Shown here: positions 27,974 to 32,147 of the stretch, in pieces
How positions within the stretch are numbered: position 1 is the first letter of the stretch
How the letters are laid out: every line of letters starts with the position of its first letter
Origin: an uncultured Microcaldota archaeon
GTDB lineage: Archaea; Micrarchaeota; Micrarchaeia; Micrarchaeales; Micrarchaeaceae
Direction of reading: 5' to 3'
NCBI GenBank assembly: GCA_903884115.1
Contig: CAISDH010000033.1
Span: forward strand, 62,001 to 126,000
Length of the DNA: 64,000 nucleotides
Made by a program: the position numbers and the translations under genes
Notes under the pieces: generated by a model
What the model saw: the letters and a program-made list of their open reading frames with translations, nothing else
What the model was told of the DNA's origin: nothing
Databases searched by the model: none

Positions 27974-29452
27974 ATGAAGAAAGAGAGCAAAGCATGGGAT
28001 ATAGTCGCAAGGCGCGGCATCTACTTTCAGGCGTTTGGGATATATGAGAGCATAGCAGGCTTCTACGATTACGGGCCTGTGGGCTTCAGAATAAGGAAGA
28101 ACCTGGAGAACCTGTGGCGTTCCATCGTTGTCAGAAGAACCGGTTCATTGGAGATAGACGCCACGAAGGTTGTGTCAGAAGTGGTTCTGAAGGCCAGCGG
28201 CCACGTAGCTACGTTCGCGGACTTTATAACAATTTGCGATACGTGCAAGACATCATACCGTGCCGATAAGATAGTGGAAGCTTATTACGAAAGTAAGGGC
28301 ATGCAGAAGGAGTTTGACAGCGTAAAGAAGATGAACGCTGCAGCTCTCCAGTCTGCGCTCGACACTCTTGGAATAAAGTGCGCTGCATGTGGAGGTATCA
28401 AGTACAGCAAGGTCGAGCCTTTCAACATGCTCTTCAAGACGCAGGTAGGCCCCTATGGCAGGGATCCTGCATATCTGAGGCCAGAAACTCCGCAGGGCAT
28501 ATTCATAGACTTCTGCCACATATTCAAAACAAACTCTGTCAAGCTGCCTGTAGGGATATGTCAGATAGGTGTTGTTTTCAGGAACGAGATATCGCCAAGG
28601 CAGCAGCTTGTGAGACTAAGGGAGATAACGCAAATGGACTTGGAGCTATTCATAGACCCTGACGAAGATCCGAAAGATCTTCTAGAGTTTGACATGAACG
28701 AGATTCTCAATACAAAGGTGAACTTCATTCGCAGAGGTACCGATAATGAGGAGAAACTTACACTTAAAGAGTTGCTCGAGAAAGGCTCCATCCCGAACAA
28801 GTACTTTGCGTCACTGCTGTTTCTTGAGGACCGCCTGCTTTCCGTTGCGGGCTTTGACCCCTCAACATACCGGTTCAGGGAACTGAACCTTGAGGAGCTG
28901 CCCTTCTACTCCAAGGGTAATGTAGATTTGGAAGTGAAAACAAGTTACGGTTACATTGAACTTGCTGGCAATGCGTACCGGACAGACTACGACCTGTCAT
29001 CACATGCAAAGATGTCAGGCAAGGACCTCAGCGTAATAAACAACGAGAAAAAGATAGTGCCTCACATAGTTGAGGCTTCGATGGGGCTGGACCGGCTTGT
29101 CTTCTCGCTGCTGGACAACAGCGTTGTTGAGGACAAGGAGCGTGGCTGGGACTGGCTCAAATTGAAAGAGTCTGTTGCACCTTACAAGTACGGGATATTC
29201 CCGTTGCAGAAGGACGACAAGCTGATTGAAAAGGCAAAGACGCTGTACCGCAGCATGCTCGAAAAGAACATAGACTGTTTCTATTCTGAGACTGCAAGCA
29301 TAGGCAAGCGCTATGCAAGGGCTGATGAAATAGGTGTGCCCTATGCAATAACCATCGACTACCAGACTATGGAAGACAATACCGTGACCGTGCGCAGCAT
29401 AAAGGATGCAAGCCAATTAAGAAAACCGATAAATGAGCTATTGGTTGCGTGA
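27974..29452 (+). CDS. glyS: Glycyl-tRNA synthetase (class II, archaeal type)
   Basis: Protein of 492 residues that charges tRNA-Gly. Motif 1 lies near the N-terminus after YDYGPVGFRIRKNL. A zinc-type insertion has CDTCKTSYRAD and CAACGG. Motif 2 is in GVVFRNEISPRQQLVRLREI and motif 3 in EASMGLDRLVFSLL. The C-terminal anticodon domain ends with QTMEDNTVTVRSIKDASQLR. ATG 27974 is chosen because the longer frame from 27833 lies inside the divergent nop5 gene. A decayed second copy of its last ~55 codons lies at 31102-31272. Confidence 0.95.
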   Translation: MKKESKAWDIVARRGIYFQAFGIYESIAGFYDYGPVGFRIRKNLENLWRSIVVRRTGSLEIDATKVVSEVVLKASGHVATFADFITICDTCKTSYRADKIVEAYYESKGMQKEFDSVKKMNAAALQSALDTLGIKCAACGGIKYSKVEPFNMLFKTQVGPYGRDPAYLRPETPQGIFIDFCHIFKTNSVKLPVGICQIGVVFRNEISPRQQLVRLREITQMDLELFIDPDEDPKDLLEFDMNEILNTKVNFIRRGTDNEEKLTLKELLEKGSIPNKYFASLLFLEDRLLSVAGFDPSTYRFRELNLEELPFYSKGNVDLEVKTSYGYIELAGNAYRTDYDLSSHAKMSGKDLSVINNEKKIVPHIVEASMGLDRLVFSLLDNSVVEDKERGWDWLKLKESVAPYKYGIFPLQKDDKLIEKAKTLYRSMLEKNIDCFYSETASIGKRYARADEIGVPYAITIDYQTMEDNTVTVRSIKDASQLRKPINELLVA

Positions 29453-29559: not shown

Positions 29560-30591
29560 CTAATCAAAATCCCTTTTTGCAGATTTATACGCTAAAGATA
29601 CTCCTGGAAAGTTTCTGGCAGGACATATGAGATCTTTTTTATTTTTACTTACCATTCCTCTACTCCACATTGCTACTTTGTTGGGATCCAACTCCAAACT
29701 TCCATCAGGTAACAATTTACCTACATTGTTATACTCTGCCGAATACAACAGCACTGGACATTTCTGAATATCACCGGTTGCTCTTATGACAAAAGCGTAT
29801 GGCCTAGCTGCATAACAGAGATTCAAGGGATTTTCCCTGAATATCTTCAGGTTAAGCGACTTTGCATATTCTATCAATTCTTTAAGTGGTTTTTTCGTCT
29901 CTATTATGGGCAGCGTTTCATCATTTTTACCTCCATATTTAGATAAAGGAAGAATGAGTAATGAAAACCTCTTATCTGTTCCAAGGTCTGCTTTAATACG
30001 ACGTATAAACCGCTTCATACTTGTTAGATTCTTACTATTTACGTGCATGCGTATTATTATTGAAAAATCAAGATTCGTTTTGCTTGCAAAAACTATGTTA
30101 TTCCAGATTGTATCAAAGGTAGGGTCGCCGCTTACGCTATGCCTTAATTTGTTATGCTCCTCTCTATCTCCATCAAAGCTTATCTGATAAGATATGATTC
30201 CCTTTTTTACAAGCTCGGATAGTTTGTCTACTTTTAACAACGAGGCATTAGTTGTTATAAGTCCAAGTACCTCAAGGTTTGGATTGTACTCCTTTTTTAA
30301 ATAATTAACATGTTCCATTACGTCCGATATCACATTTTGTGCTAAAAGCGGCTCTCCACCATACCAGCGTATGATTAATGTTTTTAGGTCTGGTATTCTT
30401 TGTTCAAGTAAATGTTTAATAGCCAAAACAGTCTCTGCAGACATTTTTCCTATTAAAAAATCTTCGTAGCAATAAATGCAACGGAAATTACACTGCTCTG
30501 TCGGCAATATTGTGAGTTCCAATCTTCTATTTAGGTCCTCTATTATGTTTATCAGTACCACCACTTTACATCGTACCGACTGTGCTCGCAT
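29560..30591 (-). CDS. Radical SAM enzyme with half-SPASM (twitch-like) C-terminus, probable peptide maturase
   Basis: Protein of ~343 residues in an AT-rich segment. The N-terminal radical SAM motif CNFRCIYC binds the [4Fe-4S] cluster that cleaves S-adenosylmethionine, followed by WYGGEPLL and ITTNASLL. The C-terminus has a C-x13-G-x4-C pattern (LCYAARPYAF..TGDIQKCPV) and one later Cys (LICPARNFPG). This resembles the first half of a SPASM domain, enough for one auxiliary cluster. Such enzymes commonly install crosslinks in ribosomally made peptides. A 42-residue Cys-ending gene lies 48 bp upstream on the same strand. ATG 30591 is used; GTG codons at the VVVLINII segment are alternatives. 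Confidence 0.85.
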   Translation of the reverse strand: MRAQSVRCKVVVLINIIEDLNRRLELTILPTEQCNFRCIYCYEDFLIGKMSAETVLAIKHLLEQRIPDLKTLIIRWYGGEPLLAQNVISDVMEHVNYLKKEYNPNLEVLGLITTNASLLKVDKLSELVKKGIISYQISFDGDREEHNKLRHSVSGDPTFDTIWNNIVFASKTNLDFSIIIRMHVNSKNLTSMKRFIRRIKADLGTDKRFSLLILPLSKYGGKNDETLPIIETKKPLKELIEYAKSLNLKIFRENPLNLCYAARPYAFVIRATGDIQKCPVLLYSAEYNNVGKLLPDGSLELDPNKVAMWSRGMVSKNKKDLICPARNFPGVSLAYKSAKRDFD

Positions 30592-30639
30592 TGGCCCTAA
30601 TCCTGTCAATAGTGAGATACTGCGTCTAGTTGCACAATT

Positions 30640-30768
30640 TTAGCATTTGCCTTCTAGGCACTGTATTAATTTCACTTTTGACATCTTCTGCATTATTGCT
30701 TTGCTAACTTTGGGATTGAAAGCTTCAATCCTGCCAAATTTGTCGAAAGACATATTTATGTCGTTCAT
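30640..30768 (-). CDS. Candidate RiPP precursor peptide, 42 residues
   Basis: Short frame from ATG 30768 to TAA 30640 on the minus strand. It begins MNDINMSFDKFGRIEAF, continues through a Lys/Met-rich helix-like middle (SKAIMQKMSKV), and ends KLIQCLEGKC with Cys at 37 and 42. A TATA-like TTTTAAATA is centred 25 bp before the ATG, which marks this exact codon as a leaderless start. The radical SAM gene follows after 48 bp. A leader-plus-short-Cys-core plan with an adjacent radical SAM maturase is typical of ribosomally synthesised, post-translationally modified peptides. No known precursor family is recognised, so the assignment is inference from layout. Confidence 0.6.
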   Translation of the reverse strand: MNDINMSFDKFGRIEAFNPKVSKAIMQKMSKVKLIQCLEGKC

Positions 30769-30788
30769 CCCATCAACCACTCTTGTAA

Positions 30789-30797
30789 TATTTAAAA
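30789..30797 (-). promoter_or_regulatory. TATA-like box of the peptide/radical SAM cassette
   Basis: The minus strand reads TTTTAAATA, centred 25 bp upstream of ATG 30768. This spacing predicts a transcript beginning at or next to the start codon. Confidence 0.55.
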
Positions 30798-31101
30798 GTA
30801 ATAGTATAATAAATTTATGGTTAAAGGTCCAAAACTGTCTGGAGTCGGCTACAACCTTATTCTCTAACTAAATACGAAATCTGGCTGGTATTTCGACAAT
30901 AGTTCGGTCAACAGATCGAAATTGACGATGAGTATCTGATAAAACCTCCACGTATGAATTCAAACAGGCAACCATACTCGCTGGAATTGGTATGGCGTTA
31001 TGATCAAAGAAGTTCCTCAGTAACTAATTTATAGACGGAAAACAACTCTCGGTGGAATTGAATTGGTTTGTGAGGAACTTGTAACACAGAGTAGTCTGGG
31101 A
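30798..31101. other. AT-rich stretch without an assigned gene
   Basis: No supported gene. A 44-codon open piece runs from about 30902 to 31030 on the plus strand (including the segment PYSLELVWRYDQRSS) but has no clear start or family. The region may hold remains of DNA brought in with the cassette, or more decayed glyS sequence. Confidence 0.4.
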
Positions 31102-31272
31102 TGTGTGCTTTTTGACACTGATAGAAATGTTGTTAGACTTTCAGGTCTAATTACTTTCACGATTGGCTATACTTCAATAACCGTGTATTTTCAGACCTTG
31201 AAGAATAACGCTGTTACGATAAGGAGTGTAAAAAACACCACACAGGTTAGGAAGCCGATAAGCGAGATATGA
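31102..31272 (+). pseudogene. Decayed duplicate of the glyS 3' end
   Basis: The frame encodes a diverged copy of the GlyRS C-terminus. Its end reads ITVYFQTLKNNAVTIRSVKN and then TTQVRKPISEI, against ITIDYQTMEDNTVTVRSIKD and ASQLRKPINEL in the intact gene; 16 of 31 residues are identical by eye. Weaker similarity reaches back to a Cys codon at about 31102. The rest of the synthetase is absent. Its stop codon overlaps the ogg start, which suggests that glyS and ogg were originally neighbours and the cassette entered between them. Confidence 0.75.
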
Positions 31273-32147
31273 TGGCCGTGCGTCTGCAAGAGATAAGGGC
31301 CAAGGTTTTTGACATAAGGCACACTTTCGAGAGTGCGCAGCCGCTGACGTTCTACGCCTATTACGACTATGCCGATAGGGTGCTCACGTATCCCAGCAGC
31401 AAGGGCCTGGTTACTGCCGTATTCAACGGGAGCAGCGGCAACTGCCGCATCGTGGCGCACAGCAGCGGTACCCTTAGCGCAAAAGAAGAGATAACCAGCC
31501 GTTTTCGTCTCAGGGACGACATGAAGAAGATATACAGGCGTATAAGTACGGACAAATTCGTACGCGCGGCGATAAAAGAATACTATGGCATGCGCCTGAC
31601 CCGCAACGACCCGTGGGAGACCACCATGTGCTTTATCGTGTCGCAGCTGAACAACGTGAAGAGGATAACGATGATCATGCACAACATCATAAACGTGCTT
31701 GGAAGCCCGATAATGGACGACACAGGCGTAATGGCCGGCAGGGGCTTCCCAAATTGCGAGAGCCTGGCGAACGCGACAGAGAAGAAGCTCATGGCATGCG
31801 GCGCGGGGTTCAGGGCAAAGTATTTGGTTCAGGCTGCGGAATTCTGCACCAACAACATTGAGCTGGACAAACTCAAGTGCAGGAGCTACGGCAAGATAAA
31901 GGAGCAGCTCATGGAAATACCTGGCATCGGCGACAAGGTCGCGGACTGCATAGCTCTGATGGGCTATGGGAAGCTTGAGGCATTTCCCATAGATGTCTGG
32001 ATTAAACGAACTCTCGAGAATATGTACTTCAACGGCAAGCCAAAGAAGATAGAAGAACTGCACGAATTCGCGGAAGAGCGCTTCGGAGACCTTGCGGGAT
32101 ACGCTGAGCAATATATTTATGTGTACGGCAGGCATATGAGACCATGA
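31269..32147 (+). CDS. ogg: 8-oxoguanine DNA glycosylase/lyase (OGG1-like, HhH-GPD)
   Basis: Base-excision repair enzyme of 292 residues that removes oxidised guanine and nicks the strand. The helix-hairpin-helix is LMEIPGIGDKVADCIAL with the catalytic Lys in GDKVADC. The essential Asp follows in FPIDVWIKR. The N-terminal domain is the OGG type rather than AlkA. Start ATG 31269 overlaps the stop of the glyS remnant; a second ATG follows directly. Its last four bases overlap the translin gene (ATGA). Confidence 0.9.
   Translation: MMAVRLQEIRAKVFDIRHTFESAQPLTFYAYYDYADRVLTYPSSKGLVTAVFNGSSGNCRIVAHSSGTLSAKEEITSRFRLRDDMKKIYRRISTDKFVRAAIKEYYGMRLTRNDPWETTMCFIVSQLNNVKRITMIMHNIINVLGSPIMDDTGVMAGRGFPNCESLANATEKKLMACGAGFRAKYLVQAAEFCTNNIELDKLKCRSYGKIKEQLMEIPGIGDKVADCIALMGYGKLEAFPIDVWIKRTLENMYFNGKPKKIEELHEFAEERFGDLAGYAEQYIYVYGRHMRP

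What the first reader, a model, noticed from the sequence alone, without database searches (positions are those of the whole stretch)
29560..30797. Candidate archaeal RiPP cassette: Cys-ending 42-residue peptide plus half-SPASM radical SAM enzyme
A leaderless 42-codon gene ending KLIQCLEGKC (Cys37, Cys42) sits 48 bp upstream of a radical SAM enzyme whose C-terminus has the C-x13-G-x4-C pattern of SPASM/twitch maturases. The TATA-like box lies exactly 25 bp before the short gene's ATG. Known families pair such enzymes with precursor peptides that receive thioether or carbon crosslinks. I recognise no matching precursor family. The AT-rich composition differs from the surrounding operons, so the pair looks like a transferred unit. 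No protease or exporter gene is visible nearby.
Basis: partly seen in the sequence, partly recalled or inferred. Interest (0 to 1): 0.82.

Follow-up and report, generated by a model that had tools for sequence, protein, structure and literature searches.

The report
Micrarchaeal modified-peptide gene pair
A tiny archaeon carries a two-gene cassette: a small peptide ending in cysteine, and an iron-sulfur enzyme that probably cross-links it; the same unrecognised family recurs in other Micrarchaeota, in scattered bacteria and in a phage, so it looks like a mobile peptide natural-product system with no current family name.

Summary
The window belongs to a Candidatus Micrarchaeota genome. On the minus strand a 42-residue peptide gene (30640-30768, ending CLEGKC) lies 48 bp upstream of a radical SAM enzyme (29560-30591) with a CX3CX2C motif and a three-Cys twitch domain. 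Homologous enzymes (43-47% identity) in six other Micrarchaeota, more distant bacterial ones and one phage enzyme mostly sit beside short peptides with the same layout: a leader motif [hydrophobic]-D-x-x-G-[R/K]-[hydrophobic], then a core with C-x(3-6)-C near the end. That combination occurs in 0 of 846 background ORFs. Tandem peptide copies differ mainly by synonymous changes. No NCBIfam or Pfam model names the peptide; the best maturase model scores 121-164 bits against a 525 cut-off. No RRE was found. The pair was acquired: it lies between an intact, foreign-looking glyS and a decayed glyS 3' end that still abuts its usual neighbour ogg. Most likely mechanism: the leader docks directly on the maturase, which installs Cys-based (probably thioether) cross-links in the C-terminal core. 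Chemistry, cleavage, export and target are inferred.

The parts
30640..30768 (-). Precursor peptide gene, 42 aa, leader plus Cys-ending core
   Evidence: top hit of 1400 window frames to a leader profile built without it (E 0.026)
30727..30750 (-). Leader motif SFDKFGRI (D-x-x-G-[R/K])
   Evidence: D9 and G12 conserved in the archaeal precursor alignments; 0 of 846 background ORFs have it followed by two Cys; predicted beta-hairpin
30643..30660 (-). Core CLEGKC (Cys37-x4-Cys42), C-terminal
   Evidence: C-x(3-6)-C near the end recurs in the precursors of related loci
29560..30591 (-). Radical SAM/twitch peptide maturase, 343 aa from ATG (TTG at 30609 possible)
   Evidence: PF04055 3.6e-13; best PDB sequence match 5WGG 6.1e-19; AlphaFold2 mean pLDDT 87.8 and Foldseek matches to anSME, CteB and SkfB
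30469..30492 (-). CX3CX2C motif for the SAM-binding 4Fe-4S cluster
   Evidence: Invariant in 14 homologues; L046 was left out because its reading frame lacks this stretch
29758..29817 (-). Twitch motif C259-x13-G-x4-C278
   Evidence: Invariant in 14 homologues
29623..29625 (-). Third auxiliary-cluster cysteine, C323 (in a Cys-Pro)
   Evidence: Invariant in 14 homologues
30788..30796 (-). TATA-like box TTTAAATAT upstream of the peptide gene
   Evidence: Sequence; weak, AT-rich region
27977..29452 (+). Intact glyS, probably imported with the cassette
   Evidence: 60-68% identity to a genome of another family (L083) but 43-48% (N part) to own-family genomes; ogg shows the reverse
31038..31272 (+). 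Decayed remnant of a second glyS 3' end
   Evidence: tblastx E 2e-9 to intact glyS; 25-nt match 28936/31038; abuts ogg as in relatives
31269..32147 (+). ogg-like DNA glycosylase, native neighbour of glyS
   Evidence: HhH-GPD and OGG_N; directly follows glyS in most Micrarchaeota examined

Best explanation
This is a minimal RiPP cassette (ribosomally made, enzymatically modified peptide) that arrived by horizontal transfer at the 3' end of glyS. The 42-residue peptide is translated as leader plus core. The leader (beta-hairpin MSFDKFGRIEAF followed by a helix) is recognised by the maturase without a PqqD-like RRE. The maturase makes a 5'-deoxyadenosyl radical at its CX3CX2C cluster. The C-terminal Cys-x4-Cys core reaches the auxiliary cluster, held by three Cys and probably with an open site for a substrate thiolate, and a Cys sulfur is joined to a carbon of a nearby residue (sactipeptide- or ranthipeptide-like thioether). 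A cellular protease then releases a small Cys-containing cyclic peptide, most likely used in competition or signalling. Shown by computation: gene pairing, conserved leader and core, invariant cluster ligands, mainly synonymous change between tandem copies, patchy distribution, transfer scar. Inferred: leader docking, thioether chemistry, cleavage, export, target. My odds: RiPP pair 0.9; thioether chemistry given that 0.6; competition or signalling role 0.5.
For: Linked DxxG-leader/Cys-core peptides in 7 of 8 archaeal loci tested and 3 of 8 bacterial loci by the pattern, against 0 of 846 background ORFs, plus near-matching peptides in L038, L039 and L043. Tandem precursors in L023, L024 and L038; the L023 core block differs at 11 synonymous and 2 nonsynonymous codons, the L038 pair at 11 and 5. 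Precursor profile hits in the family lie only at these loci. The nearest solved sequence is the thioether-forming SCIFF maturase CteB, with SkfB also hit, and the best-scoring named rSAM models are Cys-rich, Clo7bot, ranthipeptide and geopeptide maturases. The fold matches anSME, CteB, ChlB, SkfB and SuiB. In a model of peptide plus enzyme read through the TAA, the leader forms a hairpin with pLDDT about 73-78 while the linker is about 37-48. Accessory genes fit RiPP loci: M16 peptidase (L066), transglutaminase-like and PPDK_N/PEP-utiliser proteins, C39 ABC exporter, HlyD and S41 protease in bacteria. The phage copy L112 has a peptide ending CGIGC.
Against: No RRE, protease or exporter is linked in the window, and the genome lacks PqqD, ABC_membrane and M16 matches. 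A C-terminal Cys has no residue after it, so its thioether partner would have to lie upstream, unlike PapB. Core residues other than Cys are not conserved. L022 has a leader fused to the enzyme and no core. pLDDT does not prove docking, and coordinates could not be inspected. The background pattern was written after seeing the archaeal peptides.
Confidence: 0.75

Rival explanations
1. RiPP cassette, but the enzyme does not form thioethers: it makes a C-C or ether cross-link, epimerises, or otherwise oxidises residues near the two Cys, which then form a disulfide or bind metal.
For: Radical SAM/SPASM sequence similarity does not fix the chemistry: the model also matches anSME, SuiB (C-C) and EpeE (epimerase). 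Acceptor residues are not conserved between cores.
Against: Cys is the only conserved core residue, and the best-scoring named maturases are those of Cys-rich or thioether peptides. No aromatic residue is conserved, as cyclophane formers would need.
Confidence: 0.3
2. Metal-binding or redox-cofactor peptide: the modified Cys-x(3-6)-Cys tail is a ligand or electron carrier used inside the cell, which would explain the missing exporter.
For: No ABC_membrane match in the genome; C-x(3-4)-C tails; PqqA and mycofactocin are precedents for intracellular rSAM-made cofactors (established knowledge).
Against: Cores vary widely in length and number of Cys, and cofactor precursors are usually strongly conserved. 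Bacterial relatives sit with C39-ABC/HlyD export genes, and the phage copy has a signal-peptide-like N-terminus.
Confidence: 0.15
3. Decaying immigrant: the pair was once functional but is now a non-expressed passenger.
For: Flanked by a pseudogene remnant; missing processing genes; a broken relative with internal stops in G049 (L031) and an enzyme fragment in G026 (L028).
Against: Both window ORFs are intact with all motifs, while the neighbouring glyS remnant has decayed badly; that suggests selection has kept the pair.
Confidence: 0.1
4. The short ORF is a chance ORF and the enzyme acts on another protein, as sulfatase-maturing enzymes do.
For: The top structural matches by E-value are anSME chains.
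Against: Conserved leader and Cys core at the same place in many loci, 0 of 846 in background; mainly synonymous differences between duplicates.
Confidence: 0.03

Closest known systems
TIGR04463 radical SAM/SPASM RiPP maturases ('rSAM_vs_C_rich')
   Same: Best NCBIfam match (121 bits window, 146-164 bits relatives); named for a Cys-rich partner
   Different: Far below the 525-bit cut-off; aligns only from model position 62-80 on, so the N-terminal part is absent; three-Cys twitch instead of full SPASM
SCIFF maturase CteB and ranthipeptides, including PapB
   Same: Closest solved sequence (5WGG); Cys-containing core; rSAM plus auxiliary cluster
   Different: No RRE; no six-Cys SCIFF precursor; no CX3D/E core motif; PapB model 89 of 340 bits needed
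Sactisynthase SkfB
   Same: rSAM plus twitch (per PMC8326336); sequence and fold matches
   Different: SkfB carries an N-terminal RRE; the precursors here match no known sactipeptide family
archaeal rSAM RiPP clusters predicted by antiSMASH (PMC12144867, PMC12153355)
   Same: Ranthipeptide/sactipeptide-type clusters reported across archaea including DPANN (PMC12144867); RiPP-related clusters in DPANN of acid mine drainage (PMC12153355)
   Different: I found no description of this precursor family, the DxxG leader, or the glyS insertion in the passages read; supplementary tables could not be opened

Membership tests
rSAM-modified RiPP (general) | Radical SAM core with CX3CX2C | tested here: met
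   C34, C38, C41 invariant in 14 homologues
rSAM-modified RiPP (general) | Small precursor with conserved leader and variable core next to the maturase | tested here: met
rSAM-modified RiPP (general) | Modified peptide product | not testable with these tools
   Needs mass spectrometry
rSAM-modified RiPP (general) | Leader recognised by a fused or separate RRE (common, not universal) | tested here: not met
   The 343-aa enzyme begins close to the rSAM core; no PF05402 match in the genome; an HMM search could miss a divergent RRE
Sactipeptide/ranthipeptide (thioether RiPP) | Auxiliary-cluster Cys in a SPASM or twitch domain | tested here: met
   C259-x13-G-x4-C278 and C323 invariant: twitch type
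Sactipeptide/ranthipeptide (thioether RiPP) | Cys S-to-C thioether in the core | not testable with these tools
   Needs product analysis
TIGR04463 family | Score above curated cut-off (525) | tested here: not met
   121.3 bits for the window protein, 146-164 for relatives
PapB ranthipeptide maturases (NF047865) | Score above cut-off (340) | tested here: not met
   89.2 bits
PapB ranthipeptide maturases (NF047865) | CX3D/E core motif | tested here: not met
   Core is CLEGKC; Glu is at Cys+2 and nothing follows Cys42
SCIFF maturase (TIGR03974) | Score above cut-off (425) and six-Cys precursor | tested here: not met
   50.5 bits; precursor has two Cys

The most novel reading that the evidence does not exclude
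A cross-domain, mobile RiPP family whose leader is a DxxG[R/K] beta-hairpin docking directly on an RRE-less twitch maturase, and whose free C-terminal Cys of a C-x(3-6)-C tail is modified by a linkage not yet described, giving DPANN archaea a secreted or cell-bound peptide aimed at their hosts or neighbours.
Probability: 0.3. Interest if true: 0.8.

Novelty: new variant of a known kind. Interest (0 to 1): 0.62.

Why it matters
DPANN archaea are tiny and host-dependent, and according to PMC12144867 the only archaeal RiPPs validated before that work were two haloarchaeal lanthipeptides. A two-gene cassette with a recognisable precursor family is small enough to express in E. coli, so it makes two questions directly testable: do Micrarchaeota make modified peptides, and can an rSAM maturase read its leader without an RRE? 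The leader motif also gives a search handle for related precursors in bacteria and phages that annotation misses, and the glyS scar shows one route by which such cassettes enter reduced archaeal genomes.

Tried and rejected
Chance ORF: rejected by conservation, background count and codon comparison. Known NCBIfam or Pfam precursor family: none. RRE elsewhere in the genome: none. Exporter of the ABC_membrane type or M16 peptidase elsewhere: none. tRNA-targeted integration: no tRNA in the window; no clean att-like repeat stood out. Self-resistance GlyRS idea (a foreign glyS as immunity gene): considered, but no other cassette was seen beside an aminoacyl-tRNA synthetase gene in the regions listed (not annotated exhaustively), so not pursued. 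Literature on TIGR04463 and on ChlB/ChlA: no papers held. Strong support for archaeal monophyly of the enzyme was not obtained (74/83).

Full report
What is there. The window is part of a 1.02 Mb, 57-contig genome, 92% complete. Homologues with named records, including members of the same family, are Candidatus Micrarchaeota. On the minus strand, a 42-codon ORF (30640-30768) is followed after 48 bp by a radical SAM ORF (29560-30591 from ATG; a TTG at 30609 is possible). The enzyme matches PF04055 at 3.6e-13. C34/C38/C41 form CX3CX2C; C259-x13-G273-x4-C278 and C323 form a twitch-type auxiliary site; all are invariant in 14 homologues. L046 was not in that alignment because its reading frame lacks the CX3CX2C stretch, which may be a sequence error or a decayed gene. 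An AlphaFold2 model of the window enzyme has mean pLDDT 87.8, and Foldseek finds anSME, CteB, ChlB, SkfB and SuiB. By sequence, the best solved relative is 5WGG (6.1e-19), which is CteB.

Is the peptide real? A search of the family found six other genomes with strong matches to the enzyme, 43-47% identical, and an order-level search added one more, G148. Reading around them gave peptides ending ...HNFGCGAGC...HNVGCGAGCGGGNTVCT...GGCNNNGCTKGADSHCTNKGC...SSCSNNGCTGSNGGCTNRCR...GGCGPSDC and ...SGCDGANTGCQNSGCDGSNSGC; one with CGVGCPCPGGC followed by a longer tail; and, beside an enzyme fragment in G026...DGCNHGICINSGSC. Upstream of the Cys core lies a shared motif, such as VTIDRYGRVIL, VSFDLFGRFRV, KVVMDKYGRAS or the window's MSFDKFGRIEA. 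A pattern for this motif followed by at least two Cys matched 0 of 846 background ORFs, but linked ORFs in 7 of 8 archaeal and 3 of 8 bacterial loci tested. The pattern was written after the archaeal peptides had been seen, so this is a description of enrichment, not a blind test. A leader profile built without the window peptide ranks that peptide first of 1400 window frames, E 0.026. Tandem precursors support coding function: the L023 core block differs at 11 synonymous and 2 nonsynonymous codons, the L038 pair at 11 and 5. In 85 family genomes, a precursor profile hits only these loci (members of the profile match by construction, but the zero elsewhere is informative).

Exceptions. In G065 (L022) the leader is in frame with the enzyme and no Cys core was found. 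G001 (L027) is cut by the contig end. G049 (L031) holds a degenerate enzyme fragment with stops and no peptide. Overall 8 of 301 genomes in the phylum search have a strong enzyme match, in 7 of 126 genera: patchy, as expected for transfer and loss.

Wider distribution. Bacterial enzymes at about 37-42% identity without an RRE occur in Cytophagales, Prodigiosinella, Streptomyces, Opitutia, Inquilinus, Rhodococcus, Rhizobium and Cupriavidus. Several have DxxG/Cys peptides: L038 (tandem), L039 (downstream), L040, L041, L043 and L046. More distant Paenibacillus, Heyndrickxia and Proteiniclasticum enzymes have extra N-terminal sequence and more C-terminal Cys. Three proteobacterial loci carry S41-type proteases, with HlyD or C39-ABC exporters. 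A viral contig (L112) with terminase, RecE-like and Erf-like genes carries a 71-aa peptide with a signal-peptide-like start and the end NGTCGIGC, directly before a 32%-identical enzyme. The archaeal enzymes fall on one side of a branch with moderate support, 74/83. Accessory genes vary among Micrarchaeota: PPDK_N/PEP-utiliser proteins in L023 and L026, a transglutaminase-like protein in L024, a second radical SAM protein and an FkbM-type methyltransferase in L022, an M16 peptidase in L066.

How it got here. In most Micrarchaeota examined, glyS is followed directly by ogg. In the window, the cassette lies between an intact glyS and a decayed second glyS 3' end: tblastx E 2e-9, 50% identity over 32 residues, with an upstream 25-nt piece matching 28936-28960 at 31038-31062. 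This remnant still overlaps the ogg start. The intact glyS is most similar to a genome of another family (60-68% to L083) while ogg is most similar to own-family genomes (about 56%, against about 45%). The simplest reading is that a foreign block carrying glyS and the cassette replaced native glyS and left its 3' end behind; the remnant is too short to place by itself. The AT-rich stretch includes the cassette and the remnant. No att-like repeat or tRNA was found.

Mechanism. Shown by computation: pairing, motifs, fold, mainly synonymous change between duplicates, transfer scar. Inferred: direct leader docking. There is no RRE in the enzyme and no PqqD match in the genome. Inferred: thioether chemistry, from the nearest relatives (CteB, SkfB, Cys-rich and ranthipeptide maturase models) and from Cys being the only conserved core residue. 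The twitch site has three Cys; an open coordination position for a substrate thiolate is plausible, since a review discusses a substrate-binding role for SPASM/twitch clusters (PMC8326336). A Cys at the very C-terminus must pair with a residue before it, which differs from PapB's Cys-to-Asp/Glu links. Processing and export are unexplained: no ABC_membrane or M16 match exists in the genome.

Comparison and verdict. PMC12144867 and PMC12153355 report predicted RiPP clusters in archaea including DPANN, so the kind is known; I found no description of this family in what I could read. It passes the general tests for an rSAM RiPP, fails the cut-offs of every named family tested, and lacks an RRE. 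I rate it a new variant of a known kind, interest 0.62.

Noticed in passing
window 27977-29452 and 31038-32147: glyS and the neighbouring ogg have nearest relatives in different families, and a decayed second glyS 3' end sits between them: an apparent replacement of an aminoacyl-tRNA synthetase gene by transfer.
   Followed up: partly
L112:5131-6975 (IMGVR_UViG_3300033388_006103): A phage contig carries a Cys-ending peptide (CGIGC) with a signal-peptide-like start, a related radical SAM enzyme, and an upstream 175-aa protein also with a signal-like start.
   Followed up: partly
L023:2613-4607, L026:10442-12484: PPDK_N/PEP-utiliser mobile-domain proteins with an unassigned C-terminal third follow the maturase immediately; possible phosphotransferase tailoring or immunity.
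   Followed up: partly
L022:9453-10565: The leader motif is in frame with the maturase and no core is seen; a natural leader-enzyme fusion or a deletion product.
   Followed up: no
L026:12414-13151, L028:2227-2823: Related beta-rich (DUF4097-like) proteins lie near the cassette in two genomes.
   Followed up: no
L066:390-704: IS66 transposase remnant directly upstream of the cassette in G148.
   Followed up: no
L002:880-2157 (G000:C25): A second SPASM-type radical SAM protein in the same genome, downstream of a 201-aa Cys-containing ORF; not part of this family (31% over 157 aa).
   Followed up: no
L046:5956-6933: The Cupriavidus homologue's reading frame lacks the CX3CX2C stretch; sequencing error or inactive gene.
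   Followed up: no
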